In this document: positions 37,337-58,691 of the stretch, piece by piece
How the letters are laid out: every line of letters begins with the position of its first letter
How positions within the stretch are numbered: position 1 is the stretch's first letter
From: Anaerolineae bacterium
Lineage (GTDB): Bacteria > Chloroflexota > Anaerolineae > UBA4142 > SHND01
Length of the DNA: 64,000 nucleotides
Assembly (NCBI GenBank): GCA_020851635.1
Contig: JADZCJ010000044.1
Location: forward strand, 1-64,000
Reading direction: 5' to 3'
Program-made: the position numbers and the translations under genes
Notes under the pieces: model-generated
The model's database searches: none
Seen by the model: only the letters and a program-made list of their open reading frames with translations
Told to the model about the DNA's origin: nothing

Positions 37337-38821
37337 ATGAACGACCAGCTATTTGAACAACTCGACGCGTTGACATTTGATGATTTGTTGATCGTCCCCG
37401 GCTATACACAGGTCCTGCCCGACCAGACACAGGTGCAAACGCAACTGACCCCGACCCTCCGGCTCAACATTCCCCTGCTCTCTGCCGCGATGGACACGGT
37501 CACCGAAGCGCGCATGGCAATCGCCCTCGCGCGCGAAGGGGGGCTTGGCATCTTGCACCGCAACCTGTCGCCCGAAGCACAGGCGGATGAAGTGGAAAAA
37601 GTGAAACGCAGCGAGTCGGGCATGATCGTTGACCCGATCACCCTTTCGCCCGACGCCACGCTCAAACAAGCCGAAGAGCTGATGGCGCGCTATCGCATCA
37701 GCGGCGTGCCCATCACCGACGGCAACAAACTCGTCGGCATTCTCACGAATCGCGACACGCGCTTTGTGGAGCCGTCCGACCTGGCGCGCCCCGTCCGCGA
37801 GTTCATGACGCACGAAAAACTCGTCACGGGTCCCGTCGGCACCACGCTCGACCAGGCAAAAGCTATTCTTCAGAAACATCGCATTGAAAAACTGCCGCTC
37901 GTGGATGAGGACGGCGTCCTCAAGGGACTCATCACGGTCAAGGACATTCAAAAGAAACGCGATTATCCCAATGCGGCGACGGATGCGCGCGGGCGTTTGC
38001 TCGCAGGCGCGGCAGTCGGCGTCGGGTCCGATCTGGAAACGCGCGTCGAGCTGCTGGTGGACAAGGGCGTGGATGTGATCGTCGTGGACACGGCGCACGG
38101 GCACTCGGCGGGCGTGGTCAATGCCATCAAGCGCATCAAAGCCAACTGGCGCGAGGTGCCCGTGATTGCGGGGAATGTCGTAACCAAAGAGGGGGCGAAC
38201 TTGCTGCTGGACGCGGGCGCGGATGTGTTAAAAGTGGGCGTCGGCGCGGGGTCCATCTGCACCACGCGCGTGATTTCGGGCGCGGGGATGCCGCAAATGA
38301 CCGCCATCTGGGAATGTGCCCGCGCGGCGCACGCCCGCGGCGCGACGATCATTGCCGACGGCGGCGTCAAATACAGCGGCGACATTGTCAAGGCGATCGT
38401 CGCGGGTGCGGACGCGGTCATGCTCGGCAGTCTGCTGGCGGGGCTGGACGAATCGCCCGGCGACCTGATTCTCTACGAAGGTCGGCAGTTCAAAATGTAT
38501 CGCGGGATGGGTTCCATCGGCGCGATGGCGGGACGCTATGCCGCCGACCGTTACGCGACCGGACAAAACGGTTCGGGCAAACTCGTGCCCGAAGGCATCG
38601 AAGGTATCATCCCGTATCGCGGCACGGCGCACGAATACATTTATCAACTCGTCGGGGGTTTGCGTTCGGGGATGGGGTATGCGGGTGCGGCGACGCTGGC
38701 AGACCTGCAAACAAGAACGAGACTGCGCCGCATCACAAATGCGGGGCTGATCGAGTCGCATCCGCACGATGTGACGATCACGCGCGAAGCGCCAAATTAT
38801 CAGTCGAGGGGTGGAAACTAA
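37337..38821 (+). CDS. guaB: IMP dehydrogenase
   Basis: A 494-residue enzyme oxidising IMP to XMP. The catalytic loop [17 protein letters not shown] holds the active-site Cys, and [12 protein letters not shown] and GMGSIGAM bind IMP. Two CBS domains occupy about residues 95-205 ([12 protein letters not shown] and [13 protein letters not shown]). It starts 20 nt after the palindrome block and directs the pathway toward GMP. guaA and purB are not present in the window. Confidence -1.
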
Positions 38822-42986: not shown

Positions 42987-43766
42987 ATGAACAATTCTTC
43001 TGGGAACGCCCCTGGGAACGCCAATCTCCCGATTGGCGAAGGGCCGTCAACTAACAACGCCAATGTGGAAATTGGCGGTCCCAGCGGCAATGCCAATCAG
43101 GAGATTGGCGGTCCCAGGGACGGTCCCAGGGACGGTCCCGGGGAGTATTGGCACAGTCGCGGGTATTTGCCACATTTTGAAAGCCCGGACGTGATTCAGC
43201 ATGTCACGTGGCATCTGGCGGACAGTATGCCAAAATCAGCCCTGGATCGTATGACTGACGAGCTCAAACACCTGCCGCCCGACAAGCAGCGCGCCGAACG
43301 ACGCATCCGCATCGAGGCGTGGCTGGACGCCGGTCACGGCGCATGCATTCTCCGCGAACCCTCGCTCGCCCAAATGACTCAAGCTTGCCTCCTCCATTTT
43401 GACGGCGCGCGCTATCGCATGTTGGCATGGGTCGTAATGCCGAACCACGTGCACACCCTGTTCCAACCCCTCAACGGCTGGACGGTCGCCAAAATCGTCG
43501 CATCATGGAAAAAATTCACCGCCCGCCAAATCTCCTCTGGGAACGCCCCTGGGATCGCCAATCTCCCGATTGGCGCTCTTTGGCACCGCGAGTATTATGA
43601 CCGCTTTATCCGCGACGAACGACACTTTCACACCGCGCGGAATTACATTCACCAGAACCCGGTCAAGGCGGGATTGTGCGCGCGGGAAGAGGATTGGGTT
43701 TGGAGCAGCGCGTATGCGGGGGGGAAGGACGCCAATCGGGAGATTGGCGGTCCCAGGGGCAAGTGA
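42987..43766 (+). CDS. REP-associated tyrosine transposase (RAYT, Y1/HUH type)
   Basis: A 259-residue protein. Residues 1-53 are largely translated palindrome copies (NLPIG, NVEIGG, NQEIGG and a Gly-Pro-Arg-Asp repeat). The core starts at EYWHSRGYLPHF. The HUH metal motif is in VVMPNHVHTLF (about residue 155), and YIHQNPVKAGL near residue 216 carries the likely catalytic Tyr. RAYTs cut single strands at REP palindromes and are thought to spread them. A further palindrome (residues 187-200) sits between FTARQI and LWHREYYDRFIRDE, and another forms the C-terminus. The core motifs are intact, so the protein may be active. Confidence -1.
   Translation: MNNSSGNAPGNANLPIGEGPSTNNANVEIGGPSGNANQEIGGPRDGPRDGPGEYWHSRGYLPHFESPDVIQHVTWHLADSMPKSALDRMTDELKHLPPDKQRAERRIRIEAWLDAGHGACILREPSLAQMTQACLLHFDGARYRMLAWVVMPNHVHTLFQPLNGWTVAKIVASWKKFTARQISSGNAPGIANLPIGALWHREYYDRFIRDERHFHTARNYIHQNPVKAGLCAREEDWVWSSAYAGGKDANREIGGPRGK
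43020..43109. repeat. Three palindromes inside the 5' part of the RAYT gene
   Basis: Copies at 43020-43037 (GCCAATCTCCCGATTGGC), 43059-43076 (GCCAATGTGGAAATTGGC) and 43092-43109 (GCCAATCAGGAGATTGGC). The middle copy has lost one stem pair. They are followed by three tandem copies of GGTCCCAGGGAC-like sequence. All are in frame with the transposase. Confidence -1.
43557..43574. repeat. Palindrome inside the RAYT catalytic core
   Basis: GCCAATCTCCCGATTGGC preceded by CCCCTGGGATC. The 5' flank of about 17 bases nearly matches the flank of the copy at 43020, indicating a single larger unit that was copied. It is read in frame as NLPIG. Confidence -1.
43731..43748. repeat. Palindrome at the 3' end of the RAYT gene
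   Basis: GCCAATCGGGAGATTGGC in the opposite orientation, followed by GGTCCCAG. It encodes the last residues of the transposase, ending 15 nt before the stop codon. Confidence -1.
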
Positions 43767-43899: not shown

Positions 43900-46680
43900 A
43901 TGCCCTCTCGCAAATCCTCTCCCAAAAAGAAAACGTCAACAGCAAAACATAAATCAGCGCCCGCGCGCGTGACGCGCAACGTGATCGGCGGACACAGTCA
44001 CGTCGCGTGCGCGGACTTTGTCGGCGGCGACAAGCGCACGATCAATTACGGTTTTACCCCCAGAGACGTCGAGCGGCTGATTGTCAAGGTGCTTGCCTTT
44101 TTGGAACGCGGCGCGGCGTTTCTGCCGGACGAACGCCAGCGTGAGGTATTGCGCGCACAGGTGGATGGTGAGACGCTCACTTTTCATGCGGGCGCGGCGC
44201 TGAAATTGTGGGGCCGGCGAGATGAACGCTCCTATCTCCTCTCCCTGACGGTGCGGCGCGAGTACCAGATGTGGGCGACCAAGTTCATTCCACTTGCCGC
44301 GCGGGTAGACGCCAAGCGGGATATTCAGGCACTGGATATGCCGGTGCAGTTTAGCGAATTTCGCGTGCCGCGCGGAGGTTCCGACGCATTGGCGCAAGTC
44401 ACATTTGAGCCGCTCCCCGACATTACCGAGGCGCTGGACCGGCACAGCGCCTTTGTGATTCTGGGGGAGCCGGGCGCAGGCAAGACCACGACGCTGCAAA
44501 AGATCGCTTTCGAAGCCGCGCGCCGTCTGCTGGCAACGGGTGATGGGCGCGTGCCGTTGTTTGTGCGGTTGAGCGAGCAAAGCAATCGTGAGCCGTTCGA
44601 ATTTTTGCGCGACGAATGGGAACGCCACACCGGTTCCGATTTCGCCGATGCATTGGCGGCGGGGCGTGTGTTGGTCCTTGCGGATGGAATCAACGAGCTG
44701 CCGCGCGAAGGACGCCTCAAGGCCTGGCGCCTGTTTGCCCTGGACCAAGCCGAAGCGAATCGAATCGTCTTTACGGGTCGCGAACGCGATTATGACCGCC
44801 AACTTTATTTGCCGCGCGTGCGTGTCGAACCGCTCGACGAGGCGCGCATCGCAGACTATTTGGAACGGAACGATGCCGGAGGGCTGGCGGCGCTGCTCGA
44901 CGATCCAAACACGCGTCTGCGCGAGATGGCGGGCAATCCGTTCAATCTCGCCCTGCTGGTGGCTGCGTATCGAGATAATCAGCGCGACATGGCGAATCGC
45001 GGGCGTCTCATGGAATGGTTTGTGGACGAATTATTCAAGCGCGAAGAAAAGTTAGAGCACCGCGACTGGCTGCATCGCGACGTGCAGACGCGTGCCCTCG
45101 CCCAACTCGCGTATGCGATGCAGGAACAGGGGGAGGGCACGACTCTATGGCTCCGCACCGCGCCGGCGCTCTTGCCGCAATCGGTGGAACACGCCGGCCA
45201 GGACGTGCCCGTCAAACCGGCTGACCTGTTTCGTTGCGCCCGCGCGGCGACGCTGCTTGACCCCGCGACCGACCCGAAGGACATTCGCTTTTATCATCAC
45301 CTGTTGCAGGAATACTTTGCCGCTCTCGACCTCTTGCGGCGATATGATAAAGGGGAGGACTTGTCCGGCTTGTGGCGCGCCAAACGACTCGCCGACGAGA
45401 TGCCGCCCGCTGACGTTGGGGAATGGGATGCCCTGCCTGAACCGCCCGCGACGGGTTGGGAGGTCACGACCATCCTTGCGTGTGGGCTGGCAAAGGACCC
45501 CGCGCGGTTGATCGAGACCATCCGTCCCCTCAATTCCGTCCTCGCGGGTCGCTGTCTGGACGAGAGTGGGATTGACAAGCCAATCGCGGTCACCAACAGC
45601 GTGCGCGCCGACCTGTTGTCAGACCTCAACAACCCGGCAATTCATCTGCGCGCGCGCTTGCAGGCGGGCTATACGCTCGGGCGAATTGACGACCCGCGTT
45701 TTGTTCCACAACTCTTTAACGGCGTCAAGGTGATTGTGCCGGTGATGGCGCCTGTGCCGCCGGGCGAGTATCACATCGGCAGCGCGGACGATGATCAAAA
45801 CGCTGATGACGACGAAAAACCACAACACACGGTTTCCATCCCGGCTTTTGAAATCGGACGCTATCCCGTGACGAACGCAGAATTTGCCTGTTTTATTAAA
45901 GCGGACGGATACAAACAAGACAAATATTGGGAGACCGATTTGGCAAAGCGTTGGCTACAGGGTGAAGATGTCACCGGGGGGCAATTCGGGGCATGGCTCG
46001 ATGAATGGCGCTGGATGCAAGATACTTTTGATTGGAAAGAACGACACGAACGAAGCGGGAATTATTCGCCCGACGAAATCAAGACGTTGGAATATATCGC
46101 AAGCTTGAGTGAAGACGAATTGAGACGGGTTGTGACATCTCAACTCGGCCAAAAATCGCGCGAGCACCCGCACTATTGGGACGACGCGCAGTACAATAAC
46201 GCGTCCCAACCCGTCGTCGGCATCACGTGGTTTGAGGCGCGCGCCTACTGCGCGTGGCTCACCGAGATGACGGGCAAGTGGTATCGCCTGCCGACCGAAG
46301 CGGAATGGGAAGCGGCGGCGCGTGGGAAACAAGCTCACATATACGCGTGGGGCGACGACTGGGACGCGACGAAAGCAAACACGATTGAAGGGCGCGTGTT
46401 GAAACCTTCGCCCGTCGGCGTGTATGATGCGGTGGCTCCAAGTCCTTTTGGGACGTCTGACCAAACCGGGAATGTTTGGGATTGGACGAGCACGCTCCAT
46501 CAGCCGTATCCGTATGCCATAGATGACCGTGAGGATGAAAATGCGGGTGGTGAACGCGTCGTGCGCGGCGGGTCGTTCCCCGATTTTCGTATCTATGCTC
46601 GCTGTGCGAATCGTGGCAGGGACGCACCCGTCAATTTCTACTACAATTTGTGTTTTCGGGTGTTGTCCCCTGGCTCATAG
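43900..46680 (+). CDS. NACHT-NTPase with C-terminal FGE/C-type-lectin domain, DGR target protein
   Basis: A 926-residue protein. Residues 1-30 are basic; 30-70 contain VIGGHSHVACADFVGGD, a glycine-rich segment. The NACHT NTPase follows, with Walker A GEPGAGKTTT (about 189-198), Walker B VLVLADGINEL, and a helical region to about 600. Residues 620-926 are an FGE-sulfatase/C-type-lectin domain: PPGEYHIGSADDD, GRYPVTNAEFACF, YRLPTEAEWEAAARG and NVWDWTST. The end, VVRGGSF...ARCANR...CFRVLS, is the usual diversified region of DGR target proteins. An RT gene follows. Such proteins are proposed defence or conflict sensors in which the lectin-like domain binds variable ligands. Confidence -1.
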   Translation: MPSRKSSPKKKTSTAKHKSAPARVTRNVIGGHSHVACADFVGGDKRTINYGFTPRDVERLIVKVLAFLERGAAFLPDERQREVLRAQVDGETLTFHAGAALKLWGRRDERSYLLSLTVRREYQMWATKFIPLAARVDAKRDIQALDMPVQFSEFRVPRGGSDALAQVTFEPLPDITEALDRHSAFVILGEPGAGKTTTLQKIAFEAARRLLATGDGRVPLFVRLSEQSNREPFEFLRDEWERHTGSDFADALAAGRVLVLADGINELPREGRLKAWRLFALDQAEANRIVFTGRERDYDRQLYLPRVRVEPLDEARIADYLERNDAGGLAALLDDPNTRLREMAGNPFNLALLVAAYRDNQRDMANRGRLMEWFVDELFKREEKLEHRDWLHRDVQTRALAQLAYAMQEQGEGTTLWLRTAPALLPQSVEHAGQDVPVKPADLFRCARAATLLDPATDPKDIRFYHHLLQEYFAALDLLRRYDKGEDLSGLWRAKRLADEMPPADVGEWDALPEPPATGWEVTTILACGLAKDPARLIETIRPLNSVLAGRCLDESGIDKPIAVTNSVRADLLSDLNNPAIHLRARLQAGYTLGRIDDPRFVPQLFNGVKVIVPVMAPVPPGEYHIGSADDDQNADDDEKPQHTVSIPAFEIGRYPVTNAEFACFIKADGYKQDKYWETDLAKRWLQGEDVTGGQFGAWLDEWRWMQDTFDWKERHERSGNYSPDEIKTLEYIASLSEDELRRVVTSQLGQKSREHPHYWDDAQYNNASQPVVGITWFEARAYCAWLTEMTGKWYRLPTEAEWEAAARGKQAHIYAWGDDWDATKANTIEGRVLKPSPVGVYDAVAPSPFGTSDQTGNVWDWTSTLHQPYPYAIDDREDENAGGERVVRGGSFPDFRIYARCANRGRDAPVNFYYNLCFRVLSPGS
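46561..46677 (+). other. Putative DGR variable region (VR)
   Basis: The 3' end of the NACHT gene encodes RGGSF-PDFRIY-ARCANR-GRDAPVNFYYN-LCFRV. In DGR-diversified FGE domains the residues between the conserved RGGS, RCA-R and FRV blocks arise from template AAC/AAT codons; here they are mixed (Asp, Phe, Arg, Ile, Tyr, Gly, Val, Asn), as expected of a mutagenised VR. Boundaries are approximate because no template was found. Confidence -1.
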
Positions 46681-46737
46681 TCCTGCTTTCTGGCTCCTGA
46701 ACTCTGGTTTCTGCAGTTCTGCAATCCTGCGGGGGGT

Positions 46738-46760
46738 GCAGGGGGGCTGTGCCCCCCTGC
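46738..46760 (+). repeat. GC-rich hairpin downstream of the VR
   Basis: GCAGGGGGGC and GCCCCCCTGC form a perfect 10-bp stem with a TGT loop, 58 nt after the target gene. DGRs often have a hairpin or cruciform shortly downstream of VR that promotes retrohoming; this may be that element. Between the stop codon and the hairpin is a TTTCTGG-like micro-repeat. Confidence -1.
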
Positions 46761-46797
46761 CGAACGCGCGAAAAATTTTTTACAGGAGGTGACGACC

Positions 46798-47883
46798 ATC
46801 AAGACGTTCAAACATTTGTATCCTCAAATCACCGCGTTCGAGAACCTGTATCGCGCGTTCAGGGGCGCAGCGCGCGGCAAGCGCAGTCATCCCGATGTGG
46901 CAGCGTTCGAGTATGACCTGGAACAAAATCTGGTGCGCCTGCAAATGGAACTGCAAGCGCAATCCTATCGCCCCGGCGCGTATCACAATTTCCAGATTCA
47001 AGACCCCAAGCCCCGACTCATTTCTGCCGCTCCTTTCCGCGACCGCGTCGTCCACCATGCGCTGTGCCAAATCATCGAACCGATTTTCGAACGGCGTTTT
47101 ATCTCGGATTCGTATGCGTGCCGCAAGCGCAAGGGCACGCATGCCGCGGTCAACCGCGCCCAGCAGTTTGCGCGCCGGTATCGCTATGTCCTGAAATGCG
47201 ACATCGAGCACTTTTTCCCCCGCATTGACCATGCGATATTGCGCGCCGAAATCGCCCGCCGGATTGCGGATGGGGATGCGATGAACATGGTTGACCTGAT
47301 CCTCGCAAGCGGGCAGTCGGTGCACCGCGACGAGCCGCCCGTCTGGTTCGAGGGCGACGACCTGTTTGCCGCGCTCCGCCCGCGCGGTCTGCCCATCGGC
47401 AATCTCACTTCCCAGTTTTGGGCGAATGTATATCTCAATCCGCTCGACCAATTTATCAAGCGCGAACTGAAATGTCACGGCTATGTGCGCTATGTGGATG
47501 ATTTCCTGCTCTTTTCCGACGACAAGGCGACTCTGCACGAATGGCGCGCCAGGGTGATTGCGTTTGCGGCGGCGCTTCGTCAGCGTCTGCATGAAAATGA
47601 ATCGGTTGTGTTTCCCACCCGGACAGGAATTCCCTTTCTCGGCTGGCGCGTGTATCCCGACCACCGGCGGCTGAAGCGGCGCAACGGCGTCCGGTTTGCG
47701 CGGCGGCTCGCGCTCTTGTGCGGGCAGTTGGAACGCGGCGAGATTCCGCTCGAAAGGGTTGCCGTTTCGGTGAATGGCTGGCTCGCGCATGTCCGGCATG
47801 GCGACACGTGGGGCTTGCGGCGCGCGCTCTTGTCACGCGTGGTCATGCCGCGTCCTATCCCGGTCAAAAGCGAGACATCATGA
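46798..47883 (+). CDS. DGR reverse transcriptase
   Basis: About 361 residues. The N-terminus KTFKHLYPQITAFENLYRAF matches DGR RTs. GLPIGNLTSQFWANVYLN (from 47386) is the DGR-type motif 4, RYVDDFLLF (YVDD at 47491-47502) is the catalytic site, and a thumb-like C-terminus follows. It copies a template RNA with adenine-specific errors to diversify the target. The conserved start position is ATC at 46798, five nt after a perfect AGGAGGTGA Shine-Dalgarno sequence. GTG at 46789 is in frame but overlaps the Shine-Dalgarno itself. Expression may be weak or lost. Confidence -1.
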   Translation: MKTFKHLYPQITAFENLYRAFRGAARGKRSHPDVAAFEYDLEQNLVRLQMELQAQSYRPGAYHNFQIQDPKPRLISAAPFRDRVVHHALCQIIEPIFERRFISDSYACRKRKGTHAAVNRAQQFARRYRYVLKCDIEHFFPRIDHAILRAEIARRIADGDAMNMVDLILASGQSVHRDEPPVWFEGDDLFAALRPRGLPIGNLTSQFWANVYLNPLDQFIKRELKCHGYVRYVDDFLLFSDDKATLHEWRARVIAFAAALRQRLHENESVVFPTRTGIPFLGWRVYPDHRRLKRRNGVRFARRLALLCGQLERGEIPLERVAVSVNGWLAHVRHGDTWGLRRALLSRVVMPRPIPVKSETS

Positions 47884-48116
47884 ACCAATCACCGATTTTC
47901 TCCAAGACCTATGATTTCGTCGCGTGGCTCATCCCGCTGACGTGCAAATTCCCACGGCAGCACCGCTTTGTCATGGCAGCCGCGTTACAGCGCGATACTC
48001 TGCGCTTTCAGGAACTGCTCAAAGCCAAATATCAAACCCGACCCATTCCCTCCGGTAGTTTCCTTCCTCCAATAAAGGCGGGAATCGAACGTTGGAATGG
48101 GTCGCTTCTCTCTTGA
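47880..48116 (+). CDS. Truncated Avd (DGR accessory variability determinant)
   Basis: A 78-residue protein starting in the RT stop codon (ATGA overlap). SPIFSKTYDFVAWLIPLTCKFP and QRDTLRFQELLKAKY match the first two helices of Avd, the four-helix-bundle partner that binds the RT and template RNA. Normal Avd is about 110-130 residues. The last 28 residues (from about TRPIPSG) do not look like helices three and four, and I find no continuation in other frames. Probably C-terminally truncated and inactive. Confidence -1.
   Translation: MNQSPIFSKTYDFVAWLIPLTCKFPRQHRFVMAAALQRDTLRFQELLKAKYQTRPIPSGSFLPPIKAGIERWNGSLLS
48039..48104 (+). repeat. 11-bp inverted repeat at the broken end of avd
   Basis: CGACCCATTCC (48039-48049) and GGAATGGGTCG (48094-48104) are perfect reverse complements flanking 44 nt. 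They coincide with the point where similarity to Avd ends, so they may mark the insertion or deletion that truncated the gene. Confidence -1.
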
Positions 48117-48806: not shown

Positions 48807-49166
48807 ATGCAGTCCAAAACAACTTTTGCGGACCTCTTTCGCGAGAGCGTGATTTTTCAGGGGTTGATCGCCGTCCTGTGCATCGTCGGCACCTTCGCCC
48901 TGCTCTTGCTCGAGCGTCCGATTCCCGATTTTGTCTGGATGATTGACGCGACGGCGGTCGGTTTCTTTTTTGGCGCGCGCAACCTGATGACGGCGCGCAA
49001 CGGCGCCAAAGAAATGGCGGAAGTGGCGACCAAATTGGCGGTCGAGAACGGGCGCATCGTCCAGGCGCTCTCCACCATGGGCTTGAGCGGACCGCTGGGG
49101 AGCGGCGTGCGCGGCGCGGTCAGTCAAGAACATTCCTACGGTGAACGAAAGGGAGACCGGGGATGA
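48807..49166 (+). CDS. Small membrane protein, holin-like in form
   Basis: A 119-residue protein. One hydrophobic segment near residues 16-36 is followed by DFVWMIDATAVGFFFGARN, possibly a second helix, and a helical polar tail (MAEVATKLAVENG). Small two-helix proteins of phage clusters are often holins, but no endolysin is present, so the assignment is weak. A good GAGGAGGG site precedes the ATG. It overlaps the next gene by 4 nt. Confidence -1.
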   Translation: MQSKTTFADLFRESVIFQGLIAVLCIVGTFALLLLERPIPDFVWMIDATAVGFFFGARNLMTARNGAKEMAEVATKLAVENGRIVQALSTMGLSGPLGSGVRGAVSQEHSYGERKGDRG

Positions 49167-49561
49167 GCGAACAGCATGAACCCACGACCCGACCAAATGG
49201 TCGCGAAATTTTGCGCCTGCGCGAACTGATGGATGTCCAGGTGACCGATGCCATGTGGGCTGCGATTATCCGCGAACTGGTCCAGGTGGCGACCGGCGGC
49301 GAAAAGGGCGCTGTCCAGGCGGCAAAACTCCTCTTTTCCTACCAGTTTGGGCTGCCCAATCAGAAATTGGGACCAAACCAGGCGCCCCCCATCCAGATTC
49401 GAACGATCACAGCATTGCTAAATGAACGAAAAACAACTCGCCACGATTCATCCGGAACTGGACGGCTGGGGAATGACGCTGGACCTGCACCCGGGACAGA
49501 CGCAGGCGTGGAAGTCGAACAAGCGCTTTGTCCTGGTGATGGCGGGGACACAGGGGGGTAA
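49163..49561 (+). CDS. Putative terminase small subunit
   Basis: A 132-residue protein. Residues 15-65 are helical (LRELMDVQVTDAMWAAIIREL, GGEKGAVQAAKLLFSYQFG), like terminase small subunits of the helix-turn-helix type. It lies directly before the large terminase and overlaps it by 140 nt. The last 45 residues, within the overlap, are Gly/Asp-rich and look like frame-shifted sequence. In the other frame a TAA lies just before the large-subunit ATG, so a frameshift may have extended this gene. Confidence -1.
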   Translation: MSEQHEPTTRPNGREILRLRELMDVQVTDAMWAAIIRELVQVATGGEKGAVQAAKLLFSYQFGLPNQKLGPNQAPPIQIRTITALLNERKTTRHDSSGTGRLGNDAGPAPGTDAGVEVEQALCPGDGGDTGG

Positions 49562-50759
49562 GACCTCTTTTGGTCCCTACTGGCTCTATCGCGAAATCAT
49601 CACCTGCGGACCCGGCGATTACCTCATTGTCACGCCGACCTTTCAACTCCTCGAACGAAAACTGCTCGGCGAGTTTCGGCGGGTCTTTGAAAAGGTTCTC
49701 GACGTTGGACGCTACCGGGCATCCCCAATGCGAGTGTTTGAATTCTCCGACGATGGCGAGCGCCGCACGCACCGGGACCGCTACGACCCCAATGTGCGCA
49801 CCCGCGTCCAGTTTGGCTATGCCGAGGATTCGGACTCGCTCGAAAGCATGACCGCCCTTGCCTGCTGGTGCGACGAGGCGGGGCAAAAGAAATTCCGGCT
49901 CGATTCGTGGCAGGCCATTCTGCGGCGGCTGTCACTGACCAAAGGCCGCGTGCTCGTGACCACCAGCGTGTATTCGCTCCATTGGCTCAAGGGTCTCATC
50001 GAAAAAGCGAACGCGGGCGACAAATCCATCGAGGTCGTGCGATTCGACAGCACCGAGAACCCGACCTTTCCCGCAGAGGAATTCGAACGCGCCCGCCGCG
50101 ATCTCCCTGCTTGGAAATTCAACATGCTCTATCGCGGCATGTTCGACCGCCCGGCGGGTCTCATCTATGACTGTATTGATGAATCGGTCCAGCGCGTCCC
50201 GCGCTTTACGATTCCTCCCGAATGGAAACGCTGCCTGGGTCTCGATTTTGGCACGGTCAATACGGCGGGCGTCTATGTCGCCGAGGAGCCCGAAACAAAG
50301 CGGCTCTACATCCATCAGACCTATCACCACGGTGGCGAATCGGCGCAGGGACACGTTCGGCGGTTGCTGCAGAGCCAATACGGCATTCCCTACGCGGTCG
50401 GCGGGTCTTGGAGCGAGGACGACTGGCGCACCGAGTTTCGCAAAGCCGGTCTCCCCGTCCGCAAGCCCAAAATTCGCGATGTCGAAGTGGGCATCACTCG
50501 CACCTACGGCGCATGGCAGCGCGGCGAACTCTACGCCTTTGATGATTTGGATGAATTCTGGGATGAGGTGAATACCTACAGCCGCGCCCTCGATGAGAAC
50601 GGCGAGCCGACCGACAAGATCGAGGACGCGCACGCGTTTCACCTGATGGATGCCCAACGCTACATCATCAGCGATTTGCGCGGCGGCGCGGCGGACTATG
50701 CGCCGATTGTGATTCCGGCGGCGGACCCGTTGGCAGCGATGGATCGGGCGGGATTTTGA
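49422..50759 (+). CDS. Phage terminase large subunit
   Basis: A 445-residue packaging ATPase-nuclease. Walker A is AGTQGGKTS (about residues 40-48), Walker B is in ALACWCDEAGQKKF (about 150), and coupling motif LVTTSVY follows. The RNase H-like nuclease starts at LGLDFGTVNTAGVYV (about 272) with later acidic residues in YAFDDLDEF and EDAHAFHLMDAQRY. It powers DNA packaging and cuts concatemers. Length and motif order fit a complete enzyme. No Shine-Dalgarno sequence is seen at the chosen ATG. Confidence -1.
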   Translation: MNEKQLATIHPELDGWGMTLDLHPGQTQAWKSNKRFVLVMAGTQGGKTSFGPYWLYREIITCGPGDYLIVTPTFQLLERKLLGEFRRVFEKVLDVGRYRASPMRVFEFSDDGERRTHRDRYDPNVRTRVQFGYAEDSDSLESMTALACWCDEAGQKKFRLDSWQAILRRLSLTKGRVLVTTSVYSLHWLKGLIEKANAGDKSIEVVRFDSTENPTFPAEEFERARRDLPAWKFNMLYRGMFDRPAGLIYDCIDESVQRVPRFTIPPEWKRCLGLDFGTVNTAGVYVAEEPETKRLYIHQTYHHGGESAQGHVRRLLQSQYGIPYAVGGSWSEDDWRTEFRKAGLPVRKPKIRDVEVGITRTYGAWQRGELYAFDDLDEFWDEVNTYSRALDENGEPTDKIEDAHAFHLMDAQRYIISDLRGGAADYAPIVIPAADPLAAMDRAGF

Positions 50760-50802
50760 CGACGCAAGAGGAAGGATAAAAGACGGATGGAGCGCAAAAC
50801 CT

Positions 50803-50891
50803 TTTCCCGCGAATAAACGCGAATTTACACGAATCAGGAATAATCATTAGCGAAAATTCGCGCAGATTCGCGGGAATAATTTCGCGGGAAA
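50803..50891 (+). repeat. CGCGAAT-type repeat with terminal inverted copies between terminase and portal
   Basis: TTTCCCGCGAA (50803-50813) and TTCGCGGGAAA (50881-50891) are inverted copies. Between them are several further CGCGAAT or ATTCGCG words in both orientations. No gene is seen in the 50760-50918 gap. Confidence -1.
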
Positions 50892-50918
50892 GATTTGTGG
50901 GGTGACGAGGAATTTTAC

Positions 50919-52412
50919 ATGAACATTTTTGAGCGCATGACCAATCGCGTTTTCGGTTCCCGCATCCAAGCGTTGGTGAGCGCGCGGGTCAATCTCGCGG
51001 TGGCGGCGCGCGACGATCTGCGCGACCGACAGTGGGGCGCGAACCCGACACGCCAGGACCGCTATGCGTGGAAACGCGCCGACGTGCTGCGCGATGCGTT
51101 CACCGCCTGGCGCGAGAACCCGTTGGCGCGGCGCATCGTGGGCTTGACGAGTCAATACGTGGTCGGCGGCGGGCTGGCGGTCTCGTCGGACGACGCGGCG
51201 ACGAATGATTTTTTGCAGGAATGGTGGACGCACCGTCTGAACCGCATGACGATTCGCGCGTTCGAATGGTGCGACGAACTCACGCGGGCGGGCGAATTGT
51301 TTGTCGTGATTTCGACGGACGCGGGCGGGATGTCGTATGTGCGGGCGATTCCGGCGAGCGAGATCCAAGAGATCGAGACCGCGCCGAATGATATCGAGCA
51401 GGAACAAGCCTTTATTCAAAAGCCACAAGCGGGCGACCGGGACCCGACGCGCTGGCACGCGTATGACGAGCTGAGCGATGGGAGCGCCAATCTCCCGATT
51501 GGCGGAAGCGATGGGAGCGCCAATCTCCCGATTGGCGGAAGCGATGGGAGCGCCAATCTCCCGATTGGCGGACCCGGCTTGGGCGACGTGATGCTGCATT
51601 ACGCCATCAATCGGCCGGTGGGCGCGAAATTTGGCGAAAGCGACCTTGCCCCGCTCTTGAAATGGCTGGCGCGCTATGGGGCGTGGCTGGAAGACCGGGC
51701 GCGGCTCAACAAGTATCGCCAAACTTTTCTCTATTGGGTCAAAAAACCGTTCCGCGACAGCGCCGAACGTCTGGCGCGCCAGAGCGAGCTGAACGCCAAC
51801 CCGCCCAATCCCGGCACCATTTTTGTGACCAACGACGACGAGGAATGGTCGGTCATACACCCCAAACTCGACTCGTTCGAGGCGGGCGAGGACGGGCTGG
51901 CGATGAAAAAGACGATTGCGGCGGGCGCGGGCGTGCCCCTGCATTTTCTCGCCGAGCCCGAATCGTCCACGCGCACCACCGCCGAACAGGCGGGCGGTCC
52001 CACCTTTCGCCATTTCGAACAGCGCCAGATCTTTTTTCTCTGGATGCTGACCGACCTCGCGCGCATCGTCGTGCGCCGCGCCGCCGCCGCGGGACGGCAG
52101 GGAATTTCCGTTGACTCGGACCTCAAGGCGCGCGGCACGGACATTTTCTCGCGCGACAACGCAAACCTCGCGGCTTCCGCCTCCGCCATCATCGAGGGCT
52201 TTGGAATGCTGCGCGACCGCGGGCTGATTGACGACGCCGAATACGTGCGGCTCGCCTATCGCTTTGCAGGTGAGGTGGTGGACGTGGCAAAAATCCTCGC
52301 GGATGGAAAAAAAGCGGGCGCGACGACCACCGGCAAAAAAATCGGCAAGATTGGCGCGGACAGCGCGGCAACCGTGCCGACGGCGGGTGAGATCGCCAGG
52401 AGAGACGGGTGA
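50919..52412 (+). CDS. Phage portal protein
   Basis: About 497 residues. The N-terminus has RWAARAARDDLRDRQ-like helix content, then NPLARRIVGLTSQYVVGGG, a typical portal wing region. YVRAIPASEIQEIETAPND, then MLHYAINRPVGAKFGESDLAPLL and a long stem-clip helix region follow, ending in EYVRLAYRFAGEVVDV. Related to lambda/HK97-type portals. Residues 189-216 (three copies of DGSANLPIGGS) come from in-frame palindromes and are absent from what such proteins normally contain. The ATG at 50919 follows a GAGG site. It sits between terminase and capsid genes, as usual. Confidence -1.
   Translation: MNIFERMTNRVFGSRIQALVSARVNLAVAARDDLRDRQWGANPTRQDRYAWKRADVLRDAFTAWRENPLARRIVGLTSQYVVGGGLAVSSDDAATNDFLQEWWTHRLNRMTIRAFEWCDELTRAGELFVVISTDAGGMSYVRAIPASEIQEIETAPNDIEQEQAFIQKPQAGDRDPTRWHAYDELSDGSANLPIGGSDGSANLPIGGSDGSANLPIGGPGLGDVMLHYAINRPVGAKFGESDLAPLLKWLARYGAWLEDRARLNKYRQTFLYWVKKPFRDSAERLARQSELNANPPNPGTIFVTNDDEEWSVIHPKLDSFEAGEDGLAMKKTIAAGAGVPLHFLAEPESSTRTTAEQAGGPTFRHFEQRQIFFLWMLTDLARIVVRRAAAAGRQGISVDSDLKARGTDIFSRDNANLAASASAIIEGFGMLRDRGLIDDAEYVRLAYRFAGEVVDVAKILADGKKAGATTTGKKIGKIGADSAATVPTAGEIARRDG
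51486..51569. repeat. Three tandem palindromes within the portal gene
   Basis: Identical cores GCCAATCTCCCGATTGGC at 51486-51503, 51519-51536 and 51552-51569, with a 33-bp period. Each unit adds 11 residues and preserves the frame. They are in the same orientation, unlike the purH-guaB copies. Confidence -1.
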
Positions 52413-52479
52413 CGAATGACGAGCGACCAAGGACGCTTGACGTTTGACAAATGCTTTCTGCGATACGCAAGGAGGAACG

Positions 52480-54552
52480 ATGGAGGAGCGAACACAATTG
52501 CGCGCGAACGCGACGCCGAACGCGCAGGGTTTGTTTGAGGTGGTGCTGATTACGGCGGGGCAAGGCAACGGGTGGAATTTTTCGGCGCAGGTGCTCGAGG
52601 ATTCCGTCAAGCTGTGGGACGGGTGCGAGTGTTTTGTGGACCACGCTGGCGCGATGCAGGGCGGGCAGTCGCTGCGAAACCTGTGCGGCGTGTTTTATGA
52701 CGTGACGTTTGACGAACAGGTCGGCGGCGTCAGGGCGAAACTCAAAACACTCGGTCCGTCGGGTCCGCTGGCGGCGCAGTTGGGCAAGGAATGGCTCGCC
52801 GAGCAAGAGCCGCGTCCCGCGGTGGGTTTTTCGGCGGACATTGGATTTATTGCGTCGAGTACGACGCCGTCGAATACGACGCACGCGCAGGGGCGCGAGG
52901 TGCTCCAGATCACGCGCGTGTACTCGTGCGACATGGTGTTTGAACCCGCGCGCGGCGGGACGTTCGTCCGCGCGCTGAATGGCACCCCTGGGATCGCCGT
53001 TCTCCCGAACGGCACTCTCTCCGGAACCACCATTCAGCACAAACCAAACGGCGGCGCAAGCTGCCACGATTCACAGGAGGCAAACATGGACCCAAAACCA
53101 CTGCGCCAGCTTGGGCCTGACGCAGATCAAAGCATTGGAAAAGGCGCGAACGCGACAGAGCAAACCCCGCTCGCGTACAGCGCAGAGCAAGCGCACAAGA
53201 TGCGCGCACAAATGTGCGCCTATCTGTTGGATGCGGGCTTGAACGCATCCGCGCTGCCGCAAGCGGTGCAGGAACGCATCCGCAAACAGTTCGCGGGGCA
53301 GGTTTTTGAACCGCAAGCGCTTCAAAGCGAAATTGACGATGCGCGGGCGATGGTGAGCCAGCTGACGGGCGGCGCGGCAGTCGCGGGGTTGCGCACGGCG
53401 GTTGCGGGCATGTTCAATTCGGACGATCAACTGCGGCTGGCGGTGGAAGATTTGCTCGGGGTCGAGCGGGACGAAAAGGAAAAGGGGCTCAAGGTCGCGC
53501 GGCTGAGCGGCATCAAAGAGCTCTACATGGGCATGCAGGGCGATTTTGACCTGTATGGCGGTTTCTATCCCGAACGGGCGCGCTTTCAGCACACGACTAC
53601 CACGTTTGCGGGTCTGGTCAAAAACGCGCTCAACAAGGCGGTTGTGCGCCATTGGAACCAGCTCGGACGCGCCGGCTATGACTGGTGGACCAAGATCGCG
53701 CACGTCGAACATTTCGAGTCCATCAACCAGATCACCTGGGTGATTTTCGGCACGATTGCCTCGCTCCCCACAGTCGCCGAGGGCGGCGAATACACCGAAC
53801 TCAAAATCGCCGACTCGCCGGAAACGTCCAGCTTTACCAAATACGGCGGCTATGTGGGCATCACGCTCGAAGCGATTGACCGCGATGATACGCGCAAATT
53901 ACGCATGGTGCCGCGTGAACTGGCGAGCGCGGGGATTCGCAACATCTCGTCGCTGGTCGCCGCCCTCTTTACCTCCAATTCAGGCGTGGGTCCGACCCTG
54001 GCGGACGGCGGCGCGCTTTTCAACAACACGGCGGTCACGACGGCGGGGGGTCACGCAAACCTGTTGACAACGGCGCTCGGCACCGATTACACGGCGTGGG
54101 ATGCGGCAGCCAAAGCCATGTTCAATCAGCCGCTGTTGGTGGCGAATGAATCGGGCTATTACGGGGCGGGCAGCAAAATGGCGCTTGACCCGAAATACTG
54201 TCTCGTCCCGCGCGCCCTCAAAGCGCAAGCGGAAGCGTTGTTCATGCCGCGCTGGGCTTCGAGCGTGGACAGCATCGCGAGCGCGGGCGGTCCCACCTAT
54301 GGCGGACACGTCGTCCCCATCACCGTCCCCGAATGGACCGACGCAAACGACTGGGCGGCGGTGGCGGACCCGCTGTTGGCGCCGGGTGTGTGCATCGGCG
54401 AGCGTTTTGGGCTGCTCCCCGAAGTCTTTATCGCGGGCGACGAGACCGACCCTGCCATGTTGGCGAATGACGAGTCGCGCATCAAGGTGCGGCATTTTAT
54501 CGCCGTCGGCGTCGCCGATTTTCGACCGCTCCACAAATCCAACGTCACATAA
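52480..54552 (+). CDS. Fused prohead protease-major capsid protein
   Basis: About 690 residues. Residues 1-170 resemble a phage prohead protease: ATPNAQGLFEVVLITAGQGNG, ECFVDHAGAM with a candidate catalytic His, and PAVGFSADIGF with a candidate Ser. Residues 180-330 are helical and scaffold-like. Residues 340-690 resemble an HK97-fold capsid: FPERARFQHTTTTFAGL, YGGYVGITLEAIDRDD, ALDPKYCLVPRAL and VHFIAVGVADFRPL. The start at 52480 has a strong GGAGG site. An internal ATG at 53086 also has one. One palindrome sits at the protease-scaffold junction. Usually the two functions are separate genes. Confidence -1.
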   Translation: MEERTQLRANATPNAQGLFEVVLITAGQGNGWNFSAQVLEDSVKLWDGCECFVDHAGAMQGGQSLRNLCGVFYDVTFDEQVGGVRAKLKTLGPSGPLAAQLGKEWLAEQEPRPAVGFSADIGFIASSTTPSNTTHAQGREVLQITRVYSCDMVFEPARGGTFVRALNGTPGIAVLPNGTLSGTTIQHKPNGGASCHDSQEANMDPKPLRQLGPDADQSIGKGANATEQTPLAYSAEQAHKMRAQMCAYLLDAGLNASALPQAVQERIRKQFAGQVFEPQALQSEIDDARAMVSQLTGGAAVAGLRTAVAGMFNSDDQLRLAVEDLLGVERDEKEKGLKVARLSGIKELYMGMQGDFDLYGGFYPERARFQHTTTTFAGLVKNALNKAVVRHWNQLGRAGYDWWTKIAHVEHFESINQITWVIFGTIASLPTVAEGGEYTELKIADSPETSSFTKYGGYVGITLEAIDRDDTRKLRMVPRELASAGIRNISSLVAALFTSNSGVGPTLADGGALFNNTAVTTAGGHANLLTTALGTDYTAWDAAAKAMFNQPLLVANESGYYGAGSKMALDPKYCLVPRALKAQAEALFMPRWASSVDSIASAGGPTYGGHVVPITVPEWTDANDWAAVADPLLAPGVCIGERFGLLPEVFIAGDETDPAMLANDESRIKVRHFIAVGVADFRPLHKSNVT
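52996..53013. repeat. Palindrome variant in the protease-capsid gene
   Basis: GCCGTTCTCCCGAACGGC: stem and loop as in the RAYT copies but with two stem pairs changed on both sides (AAT/ATT to GTT/AAC), so it still pairs. The 5' flank CCCCTGGGATC is identical to the RAYT copy at 43557. Confidence -1.
53075..53088 (+). promoter_or_regulatory. Internal ribosome-binding site and start in the protease-capsid gene
   Basis: AGGAGG (53075-53080), five nt, then ATG at 53086 in the same frame (MDPKPLRQLGPD). It allows a separate product lacking the protease domain, as in the nested lambda C-Nu3 arrangement. Confidence -1.
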
Positions 54553-54556
54553 TTTT

Positions 54557-54584
54557 GCGACACGCATTATTTCGCGACACGCAT
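54557..54584 (+). repeat. 11-bp direct repeat after the capsid gene
   Basis: GCGACACGCAT occurs at 54557 and 54574. The 100-nt gap around it is made of imperfectly repeated short words and contains no gene. Confidence -1.
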
Positions 54585-54652
54585 AGCAAAACGCAGAGCA
54601 CAGAATACAGAGCTTTTCTGTCATCTGTTATCCGCACAAGGAATGAATCTCA

Positions 54653-55285
54653 ATGAACGAATCTCTTTTGAGCGGCGTGTTTCTCACCGTCGCATCGCTT
54701 GTCGGTCTTTTGGTCTTGGTCGTCATCGTCCCGCAGTGGGAACAGGTCCGCAACTGGGCGCGTTCGCTTGCAGGCGAGACCGGCGGTTACGTTCACGACA
54801 CCGGCGCGAGCCAATGGATTGACCCCGCCCTGATCGCCAAAAGCGCAGGCACCTGGACACCCACCTACTCGACCAACAAAATTTTTCATCGGCGCACGGC
54901 GGGCGATGCGACCTTCAACCTGTTTATTCCCGTGGTCGTCAAATCCAACAGCTCATCGCAAAAAGGCGCTTATCTCAAGAGCATTGATGTTTTTTACAAC
55001 GTCACCAACGCGCTCGATGACCTCGCCACCGTTGAACTAAACAAGCAATCGCTCTCATCCGTCGGCGCGCACACGGCGGGGGCTGTCACGACTACGCTTG
55101 ACAGCGGGCACGACTCGGCCGCCGAACGCAAAGCTGCGGGCGAGCACAAGATGACCGTCACCCTCGCTACCCCCGCCTGGGTGGACGACGACGAATCTTA
55201 CGTGCTCTATATGGTGTGCGACGCTGCCGCAACCAGCGTATTTGATCTCGTCGGCGCGCGGGCAAACTACACCCTGCGGGTGTAA
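54653..55285 (+). CDS. Phage-module protein with N-terminal membrane helix
   Basis: A 210-residue protein. Residues 8-26 are strongly hydrophobic (VFLTVASLVGLLVLVVIV), then a beta-rich domain (GDATFNLFIPVVVKSNSS, KSIDVFYNVTNALDDL, HKMTVTLATPAWVDD). The domain could be a jelly-roll-like surface protein with a membrane anchor, which is unusual for a virion structural gene. No family recognised. It has a weak AAGGAATG site. Confidence -1.
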   Translation: MNESLLSGVFLTVASLVGLLVLVVIVPQWEQVRNWARSLAGETGGYVHDTGASQWIDPALIAKSAGTWTPTYSTNKIFHRRTAGDATFNLFIPVVVKSNSSSQKGAYLKSIDVFYNVTNALDDLATVELNKQSLSSVGAHTAGAVTTTLDSGHDSAAERKAAGEHKMTVTLATPAWVDDDESYVLYMVCDAAATSVFDLVGARANYTLRV

Positions 55286-55350
55286 CACGCGGCGGGAGGT
55301 CACAGGCAGATGTTCGCGCTTGTCATGTGACCTCTCGCCCCACATAAACG

Positions 55351-55665
55351 ATGGAGATTTCTGCAACCGAAATGGCGTGTTTTATCTATCACGTTTCGCA
55401 AAACGAAATTCTCGCGGCGACGCTGTGTCCGGATGGCGGTTTGGCGGTGGTGATTGACCGGGGCATTCAGAGCGCGCCAAAATATGCGCTGACACGAGAT
55501 GAAACAGAACAAGCGATGGCGCGCTATTCTGCGCGCGCCGCGCGATGGCGCGCTATTCTGCGCGCGCCGCGCGCCGTGAACTGGCGGCAGCGACGGACAA
55601 AACACAACCCGCGACCGGGACGCGGGCAAGCAGAACAAAAAAAGGAGCATGAGCCATGCCGCTGA
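55351..55665 (+). CDS. Small protein of unknown function with internal tandem duplication
   Basis: A 104-residue protein. The first 55 residues (ACFIYHVSQNEILAATLCPDGG) look like a small folded domain. A 29-bp tandem repeat (55513-55570) shifts the reading frame between copies. The Arg-rich C-terminal part is therefore not conserved-looking. It overlaps the next start. Function unknown. Confidence -1.
   Translation: MEISATEMACFIYHVSQNEILAATLCPDGGLAVVIDRGIQSAPKYALTRDETEQAMARYSARAARWRAILRAPRAVNWRQRRTKHNPRPGRGQAEQKKEHEPCR
55513..55570 (+). repeat. 29-bp tandem duplication
   Basis: Two direct copies of a 29-bp unit starting GCGATGGCGCGCTATTCTGC. The length is not a multiple of three, so the duplication moves the coding frame. 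Confidence -1.
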
Positions 55666-56363
55666 CGCTGGCACAATACGAAACACAAATATCCGCGCTC
55701 TTGATGGACCCGACCAACGCGGTGTTTTCGACCGCGGTGATTGATGCGGCGGTCCGTCAGGCGTTGGGCGATTACACCCAGGCGAATCCGCTGACGACCG
55801 AAACCGTGATCGCGCTGCCGGGAGTCGGTCGCGAGATTGCGCTAAACGGAGTGAGCGGACTGATTCAGGTGACCGATGTGTGGTGGCCCTATGATTCGAG
55901 CGCAGCATCAGAAACCTGGCCCCGCAATGATCCGCTTGGGTTTCGGCTCTGGTGGGATGACGGCGCGCCGGTCCTGTTTCTGAATTCGCGCGAGGGGGCG
56001 CAACCGCAGCAAAATGACGAAATTCGCGTTTTCTATGCCAAAGCGCACACGATTCAGGACCTGGACCGGGCCGCGGCGACAACGCCCCTGCCCGCCCACG
56101 AATACATGCTTGTGCGCGGCGCGGCAGGGCTGGCATGTATCGGGCGCGCGGCTGATTTGAACGAAACTTCTTCGAACATGGCGGTCTCGACGCCCAACTA
56201 TGCGGCATTGGGCAAGCTCTTTTTGTTCGGAGACGAATTTGATCTGGGGTTTTACCCCTGGCTCGCGCTCTTGAGAACGCAGGGACAGGTGCGAGGGGAT
56301 GCATTTCCGCGAGCGGGCTGGAAGTTGGACAAATACGATGCGCTGACAGGGTGGGCAAGTTAA
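55656..56363 (+). CDS. Putative phage head-tail connector protein
   Basis: A 235-residue protein. The N-terminus (LAQYETQISALLMDPTNAVFSTAVIDAAVRQALGDYTQ) is a helical repeat typical of phage head-completion or connector proteins that sit below the portal. A beta segment (TVIALPGVGREIALNG) and the ending AGWKLDKYDALTGWAS follow. Location after the capsid gene agrees. I cannot name the family. The start overlaps the previous gene, and it ends directly before the next ATG. Confidence -1.
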   Translation: MPLTLAQYETQISALLMDPTNAVFSTAVIDAAVRQALGDYTQANPLTTETVIALPGVGREIALNGVSGLIQVTDVWWPYDSSAASETWPRNDPLGFRLWWDDGAPVLFLNSREGAQPQQNDEIRVFYAKAHTIQDLDRAAATTPLPAHEYMLVRGAAGLACIGRAADLNETSSNMAVSTPNYAALGKLFLFGDEFDLGFYPWLALLRTQGQVRGDAFPRAGWKLDKYDALTGWAS

Positions 56364-57290
56364 ATGTCGCGCAACTTGAAACGCCCCTCGCGCGACGCTC
56401 GCCGCCGAAAAACGACGGACGATTTTGTGCGCGTCTCGCGGGCGACCATCGGTCTCGTCCACGCTTACATCATCAAGGTCGGCACGGCAATCCTCGGCGG
56501 CGACCTAACCGGCAACGCACGCGGTCAATATGCGATTGACATCCAAACCGACCGTCTACCGGACGCGGGCGGCGAAACGCAGGTCGCAAGCGGCGATTAT
56601 GCCGTGCAGCTCGGCGCGCTCAACACGGTGACGGGCGACTATGGCGTCCGGGTGGGTTACGGCGGCGCGGTCTCGGGTTTGTCGGGTGTCGGCATCGGCA
56701 GCAACGCAAATGCAGAGGGTGAAGCGGCGGTCTCCATCGGACTGAATGCTTATGCCGGCGCGCAAGATTCGATTGCAATCGGCGGCGCGACAGTTTTCAC
56801 AGAGGGCGCATTGGGCATCGGGGCGACTGCGAAACTGCTAAACGCGGGATATGTCCTCAATACCGGCGTCGCGCCCATCGTCAAACGCGCGGCAGGTCTG
56901 GCGGCAGAGGCGAACTGGTCCCGCCATCTCGCGGGAGCATTGTCCGTTTTCACCAGTGGACTGATTGACCTGACAAGCACGGGGTTATACACGCTGGCTC
57001 TGCCCGCCGGGTGCAAAATCTGGCTCGCGGCGCTCGGTATCGTCGCCGTGAGCTGGGACAATGTGACCGTCCAACCGACTGTGCGATTCGGCGCAACCTT
57101 TGACGATACAAAATACGTCGCCGACCGCATCACCACACAACTAACGACTGCAGCCAAGCGCGAGCACTATCTGCCCGAAACGCTCAGCGATTTCGAGACC
57201 AGTCCAAATTTCACGGTTGTCACCGGCGCAACCGCAACCACCATGACCGCGCGCGTCTATTGGGTTGGGTTGTTGTTGGAGGATGAGTAA
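56364..57290 (+). CDS. Phage structural protein with YadA-head-like repeats
   Basis: A 308-residue protein. A basic N-terminus is followed by residues 75-150 with repeats of the form GxxAxAxG-x-SxAxG: GVGIGSNANAEGEAAVSIGLNA and GAQDSIAIGGATVFTEGALGIGA. These match the left-handed beta-roll of trimeric adhesin (YadA) heads. A C-terminal domain (IDLTSTGLYTLALPAGCK, VTVQPTVRFG) is beta-rich. Probably a trimeric fibre that binds the host surface. Phage tail fibres and bacterial adhesins share such repeats. Confidence -1.
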   Translation: MSRNLKRPSRDARRRKTTDDFVRVSRATIGLVHAYIIKVGTAILGGDLTGNARGQYAIDIQTDRLPDAGGETQVASGDYAVQLGALNTVTGDYGVRVGYGGAVSGLSGVGIGSNANAEGEAAVSIGLNAYAGAQDSIAIGGATVFTEGALGIGATAKLLNAGYVLNTGVAPIVKRAAGLAAEANWSRHLAGALSVFTSGLIDLTSTGLYTLALPAGCKIWLAALGIVAVSWDNVTVQPTVRFGATFDDTKYVADRITTQLTTAAKREHYLPETLSDFETSPNFTVVTGATATTMTARVYWVGLLLEDE

Positions 57291-57291
57291 T

Positions 57292-57332
57292 GTTTTCACC
57301 TACGGTGAAAACATTCGTTTTGCTCCGCAAAA
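57292..57332 (+). repeat. Two consecutive hairpins between fibre genes
   Basis: GTTTTCACC-TAC-GGTGAAAAC (extended by flanking AT and T) and GTTTTGC-TCC-GCAAAAC follow each other in the 48-nt gap. They could be processing or stability elements for the mRNA. Confidence -1.
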
Positions 57333-57338
57333 CAAATA

Positions 57339-58551: not shown

Positions 58552-58617
58552 CGCTCTGCACGTCGAGATGCAGGTCTGATTCGATTGTTGCGAGGGTGCT
58601 GCATCTGACGATGCGAG

Positions 58618-58691
58618 CGGAAGTGACGGGGCTCGAACCCGCGATCTCGGCCTTGACAGGGCCGCGTGTTAACCGGCTACACCACACCTCC
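58618..58691 (-). tRNA. tRNA-Asp (GTC)
   Basis: On the minus strand the 74-nt sequence folds into a complete cloverleaf: acceptor GGAGGTG/CACTTCC, anticodon stem GGCC/GGCC with loop CTGTCAA (anticodon GTC) and T-arm GGGTTCGAGCCCC-like. The discriminator is G and no CCA is encoded. Its 3' end faces the end of the phage module. Confidence -1.

What the first reader, a model, noticed from the sequence alone, without database searches (positions are those of the whole stretch)
43900..48116. DGR attached to a NACHT-FGE conflict-type protein
The 926-residue protein couples a signalling NTPase to an FGE/C-type-lectin domain ending in a typical variable region, followed by a DGR reverse transcriptase and Avd. 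This matches the idea that DGRs diversify binding domains of defence NTPases. Its N-terminus with VIGGHSHVACADFVGGD is not a domain I recognise.
Basis: partly seen in the sequence, partly recalled or inferred. Interest (0 to 1): 0.8.

Follow-up and report, generated by a model that had tools for sequence, protein, structure and literature searches.

The report
Immune-receptor mutator that lost its template
A bacterial immune-type receptor sits next to the reverse transcriptase of a system that rewrites receptor tips, but a deletion of about 0.5 kb has removed the template and half of the accessory protein gene, so this copy is probably frozen; the parts are of a known kind.

Summary
The genes are there: a 926-aa NACHT-FGE protein (43900-46680), a full-length DGR reverse transcriptase (46789-47883; nearest solved structures 8ub7-8ube, E 6e-55) and the start of avd. 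But avd stops matching after codon 47 (nt 48020), and no template repeat (TR) is found in the window or anywhere in the 5.8-Mb assembly. The DNA resumes 2 nt later inside the 3' hairpin of the RNA that follows the TR in intact relatives. I found this hairpin in 30 related DGRs (10 bp, every pair covarying, not in Rfam). A model trained without the window finds exactly three copies in this genome: two belong to complete DGRs, the third is at 48023-48105. So a deletion of about 480 nt removed avd's 3' half, the TR and most of the spacer RNA. The other two TRs do not fit this VR (23 and 30 non-A mismatches; true pairs 0-2). DGR-diversified NACHT-FGE receptors and degenerate DGR loci are already described (Dore 2024). 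An ortholog is a true DGR target; this copy is most likely a frozen receptor. New leads: the hairpin family, and a small partner protein beside orthologous receptors that shares their N-terminal motif, absent here.

The parts
43900..46680 (+). DGR target-type protein, 926 aa, NACHT NTPase plus C-terminal FGE/C-type-lectin domain
   Evidence: Pfam NACHT and FGE above cut-off; orthologs 64-76% identical in G001, G006, G008, G012; model resembles NLRC4/NOD2
43978..44049 (+). N-terminal motif region (residues 27-50, about VIGGHSHVACADFVGGDKRTINYG)
   Evidence: no Pfam match; similar GxD..GDK/GNQ motif in relatives and in the small neighbour protein; pLDDT below 50
44452..44865 (+). NACHT domain
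   Evidence: PF05729 E 7e-10, residues 185-322
45742..46665 (+). FGE-sulfatase (C-type-lectin fold) domain
   Evidence: PF03781 E 2e-48, residues 615-922; also matches Treponema DGR target 2y3c E 4.5e-4
46567..46677 (+). variable region by position (VR)
   Evidence: aligns to the VRs/TRs of G001 and G008; 27 of 37 codons end in a pyrimidine against 449 of 889 in the rest, Fisher p 0.005
46789..47883 (+). DGR reverse transcriptase, 364 aa, YVDD active site, IGNLTSQ motif, no stop codons
47880..48116 (+). truncated avd; real homology only 47880-48020 (47 codons), the rest is read-through
48020..48023 (+). deletion junction: avd codon 47 joined to the end of the spacer RNA; 477 nt lie between these points in G008, 559 nt in G001 (which has an insert of about 90 nt)
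48023..48105 (+). retained 3' terminal hairpin of the DGR spacer RNA (normally about 90-200 nt after the TR)
   Evidence: covariance model R1 46.8 bits, window not in training; fold z -4.1

Best explanation
This is a degenerate DGR locus. A NACHT-FGE protein of the NLR-like (STAND) type was once the target of a DGR with the order target - RT - avd - TR - spacer RNA. One deletion of roughly 480 nt removed avd from codon 48, the whole TR and the 5' part of the spacer RNA, leaving the RT and the terminal spacer hairpin. Shown: the intact target and RT genes, the avd truncation, the absence of a TR in the assembly, the junction, and working TR/VR pairs in close relatives. Inferred: that without TR and complete Avd no mutagenic cDNA is made for this gene, so the receptor tip is now fixed and changes only by ordinary mutation. 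Also inferred, from NLRs and the published proposal for such targets: the FGE tip senses an invader protein, the NACHT module oligomerises, and the signal passes to an effector. In relatives that effector may be the small helical neighbour protein that shares the N-terminal motif; this genome lacks a recognisable copy.
For: Avd match ends at codon 47. No TR in window or genome, with positive controls. The spacer hairpin is found blind at 48023-48105, and only two others exist in the genome, both in complete DGRs. The other two TRs are incompatible with this VR. TRs in sister G001 and ortholog locus G008 fit their VRs at adenines. The VR has excess NNY codons, as past AAY-templated mutagenesis would leave.
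Against: The RT is intact and shows no relaxation against its sister (raw syn/nonsyn changes 57/38 versus 49/40), so either the deletion is recent or the RT is still used. The genome is a draft (144 contigs, 97.7% complete); a TR could lie in a gap, or the deletion could be one strain's variant or an assembly join. Past diversification of this very copy rests on codon bias and orthologs, not on a TR.
Confidence: 0.8

Rival explanations
1. The DGR is still active: an unseen TR elsewhere in the cell is used in trans by this RT, with Avd from one of the two complete DGRs of the genome.
For: Trans action is reported for Thiohalocapsa PB-PSB1 (PMC10907252); two complete avd genes exist in this genome; the RT is intact.
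Against: Neither known TR fits (23 and 30 non-A mismatches); no third spacer RNA apart from the window's own; blastn finds no VR-like copy.
Confidence: 0.1
2. The deletion is an assembly artefact or a strain polymorphism, and the organism carries an intact DGR here.
For: Draft assembly of many contigs; in sister G001 the contig breaks inside this very region; Dore 2024 saw intact and broken variants side by side.
Against: The breakpoints lie in avd and in the spacer hairpin, not in the TR/VR repeats that could be collapsed; the contig is 244 kb long and continuous.
Confidence: 0.12
3. The RT has been taken over for another role (for example a template-free or self-primed defence RT) and the receptor is coincidental.
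For: The RT stays open with an intact active site although TR and Avd are lost.
Against: Its nearest relatives are ordinary DGR RTs; the NCBIfam matches are far below their cut-offs; the DRT models in PADLOC match only as general RT homology.
Confidence: 0.03

Closest known systems
DGRs with STAND/NACHT-FGE targets (RT clade 5D of Dore et al. 2024, PMC10907252)
   Same: NACHT, KAP or other NTPase fused to a C-terminal C-type-lectin VR, several DGRs per genome, unknown N-terminal extensions
   Different: Here TR and half of avd are gone; I did not place the RT in their tree
Degenerate DGR loci of Thiohalocapsa PB-PSB1 (e.g. DGR 7, TR replaced by MITE-like repeats)
   Same: Key machinery lost while the target gene remains
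   Different: Here a plain deletion leaving the RT and the spacer hairpin; no matching TR elsewhere in the assembly
Bordetella phage BPP-1 DGR (mtd, avd, TR, spacer, brt)
   Same: RT 38% identical over 93%; TR followed by a structured spacer RNA
   Different: Gene order differs; target is a tail protein; the hairpin model does not match the BPP-1 spacer. Only a loose core motif does, seen in 2% of shuffles and in only 19 of 40 spacers of this set
Animal NLRs and bacterial Avs/bNACHT STAND defence proteins
   Same: NACHT module with C-terminal sensor; predicted model matches NLRC4/NOD2 (E 9e-11)
   Different: No recognised effector domain; the sensor is an FGE domain

Membership tests
Diversity-generating retroelement | DGR-type reverse transcriptase | tested here: met
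   8ub7_A E 6e-55 against E 1e-21 for the best group II RT; BPP-1 brt 38% over 93%; IGNLTSQ motif
Diversity-generating retroelement | complete Avd accessory protein | tested here: not met
   47 codons only
Diversity-generating retroelement | template repeat | tested here: not met
   with positive controls
Diversity-generating retroelement | VR differing from TR at adenines | not testable with these tools
   no TR for this copy; met in the ortholog of G008 (15 A, 2 other)
Diversity-generating retroelement | C-type-lectin/FGE target domain | tested here: met
   PF03781 E 2e-48
Diversity-generating retroelement | structured spacer RNA after the TR | tested here: inconclusive
   only its 3' terminal hairpin remains
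STAND / NLR-like NACHT protein | NACHT NTPase with P-loop | tested here: met
   PF05729 above cut-off; GEPGAGKTT in sequence; NLRC4/NOD2 fold match
STAND / NLR-like NACHT protein | N-terminal effector or adaptor domain | tested here: inconclusive
   no Pfam domain; short shared motif only
Bacterial amyloid signalling motif (BASS) | motif shared by receptor and neighbouring effector and able to form amyloid | not testable with these tools
   a similar motif occurs in a neighbour protein in relatives; no BASS profiles were available and no assay is possible

The most novel reading that the evidence does not exclude
In this lineage the DGR-diversified NACHT-FGE receptor works as a two-gene system: its short N-terminal GxD..GDK/GNQ motif pairs, perhaps prion-like, with the same kind of motif on a small helical, glycine-rich-tailed neighbour protein that acts as the effector. 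The window copy is a frozen orphan that has lost template, Avd and partner.
Probability: 0.3. Interest if true: 0.7.

Novelty: new member of a known kind. Interest (0 to 1): 0.45.

Why it matters
It shows at base resolution how a DGR-linked immune-type receptor can stop diversifying while the receptor gene stays intact, which bears on whether hypermutation is a permanent or a temporary state of these systems. The covarying spacer hairpin gives a way to find DGR templates, including orphan ones, in draft genomes. The partner protein gives the missing effector a testable candidate.

Tried and rejected
DGR as prophage cargo: phage head genes lie downstream (terminase at 49422), but the related loci in G008 and G001 show no homologs of these genes, so the neighbourhood looks coincidental. 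RT as group II intron maturase: the NCBIfam hit is below cut-off and the solved DGR-type RT is far closer. A tblastn check for TR peptides failed its own positive controls because of a wrong option and was repeated with controls passing. The hairpin model does not match BPP-1, BalMu-1 or ANMV-1. The genome-contig scan gave one distant relative only (Anaerolineaceae MAG, 29%), so the host's name is not established; Anaerolineae-like Chloroflexota is inference. No remnant of the partner gene was found near the window copy or in its genome. Structure prediction was shallow (10 sequences, mean pLDDT 66.5; VR poorly modelled). The paper on BPP-1 spacer RNA structure (Handa 2025) was not held.

Full report
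What is there. The 926-aa ORF 43900-46680 has a NACHT domain (residues 185-322) and a C-terminal FGE-sulfatase domain (615-922), both above Pfam's cut-offs. It is followed by an intact 364-aa reverse transcriptase, 46789-47883. Against solved structures the RT's best match is the 8ub7-8ube set (E 6e-55), a 328-residue 'Reverse transcriptase' that I take, from its length and my own knowledge, to be the BPP-1 DGR RT. Group II RTs are far behind (E 1e-21). BPP-1 brt itself is 38% identical over 93% of the query. Closer relatives, of about 55-80% identity, lie in genomes of the same class. The first half of the reading is therefore right.

What is missing. The avd gene starts at 47880. Its product matches Avd only over about the first 47 codons. 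The window has no TR. My scan tolerates mismatches at template adenines. It finds the TRs of the two other DGRs of this genome (C103: 22 adenine and 0 other mismatches; C109: 19 and 0) and nothing for the window copy. A whole-genome blastn with the VR finds only itself and weak noise, whereas true VR-TR pairs score E 1e-20 or better at that search size.

How it was lost. Sister genome G001 carries an RT 80% identical and an avd start 94% identical to the window's. Its contig C251 overlaps C40 by 99 nt, and C40 holds the TR. Window DNA follows avd to nt 48020, then resumes at 48023 in the sequence that lies about 110 nt downstream of the G001 TR. The same two points are 477 nt apart in G008 and 559 nt apart in G001, which has an insert in avd. 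One deletion of about 480 nt therefore explains the loss of avd's 3' half, the TR and the 5' spacer.

The spacer hairpin. To test this I collected 60 RT loci of the class, found TR-VR pairs in most of them, and took the DNA after each TR. A module GGGCRAAUA-nn-AA followed by a 10-bp stem recurs. On 30 sequences, without the window, 98.7% of cells pair, all ten pairs change on both sides, and there are 67 double-change cells against 13 in shuffles; every slid control is far lower. The stem was read off these same sequences, which favours it over the slid versions, but not to this degree. No Rfam family matches. The covariance model built from these 30 finds the window at 48023-48105 with 46.8 bits. 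In the whole own genome it finds only C109, C103 and the window; the next match is at E 4.8. Among eight new matches in other genomes of the phylum, five have a TR-like peptide about 90-180 nt upstream and a sixth has RT and Avd beside it. Spacer RNA after the TR is known from BPP-1 (PMC12875486). The model does not match BPP-1, and a loose shared core motif is weak evidence only.

Could it still work? The C103 and C109 TRs differ from the window VR at 23 and 30 non-adenine positions; true pairs mostly differ at 0-2. No orphan spacer RNA exists in the assembly. Unless a template is missing from this draft (144 contigs, 97.7% complete), the VR cannot be rewritten. Past rewriting is likely: the G008 ortholog's VR fits its TR with 15 adenine and 2 other mismatches, and 27 of 37 VR codons here end in a pyrimidine against 449 of 889 elsewhere (p 0.005). 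The RT shows no excess of amino-acid changes against its sister, so the loss may be recent.

Function. NACHT/KAP-FGE targets of DGRs, their proposed role as antigen sensors, and degenerate loci with missing TR or RT are published (PMC10907252; see also PMC7159879). The predicted model of this protein resembles NLRC4 and NOD2, at moderate confidence. The N-terminus has no Pfam domain. In G006 (two loci), G012, G008 and G001 (two loci beside a receptor, one more on a short contig) there is a small protein of about 150-220 aa, mostly encoded directly beside the receptor. It shares an N-terminal motif with it (G008 receptor TIGTMKGG..GNQ; G006 partner KIGTMKGG..GRD..GNQ) and ends in a glycine-rich hydrophobic helix. 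Homotypic signalling through this motif is an inference. This genome has no recognisable copy.

Verdict. It is a new member of a known kind, a template-less degenerate DGR beside an NLR-like receptor, with two useful by-products: the covarying hairpin and the partner protein.

Noticed in passing
42987-43766: IS200-like (Y1_Tnp) transposase, probably REP-associated, directly upstream of the receptor, with palindromes GCCAATCTCCCGATTGGC in and around it; ten copies (up to 2 mismatches) in the window against none expected.
   Followed up: partly
51474-51572: Three perfect tandem 33-nt copies of a unit holding that palindrome, in frame inside a phage portal-like gene, encoding GSANLPIGGSD-type repeats.
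   Followed up: no
49163-58226: Phage head genes (terminase, portal, protease-capsid fusion), terminase up to 59% identical to IMG/VR viruses, ending near a tRNA-Asp at 58617-58691; no integrase seen.
   Followed up: partly
L055 1-164, 1483-1569, 3670-3828, 4633-4781: The 3' end of the gene I take for IMP dehydrogenase (window 37337-38821) is repeated four times in G001, as if elements had integrated there repeatedly; the receptor lies about 5 kb downstream in both genomes.
   Followed up: no
L058 6390-6509 and L080 1-118: In G001 the avd gene is interrupted near its end by a palindromic insert of about 90 nt, like the MITE-type decay reported for other DGRs.
   Followed up: partly
L055 5613-8389: The G001 ortholog of the receptor is broken into two frames and has no RT beside it.
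   Followed up: partly
L131, L143, L148, L152, L167, L204: Spacer hairpin at a DGR RT locus but no FGE-type TR peptide detected upstream; either other template types or further template losses.
   Followed up: no
L054 4681-15584: G008 array: three NTPase-FGE targets served by one RT, one avd and one TR (15-18 adenine mismatches each).
   Followed up: yes
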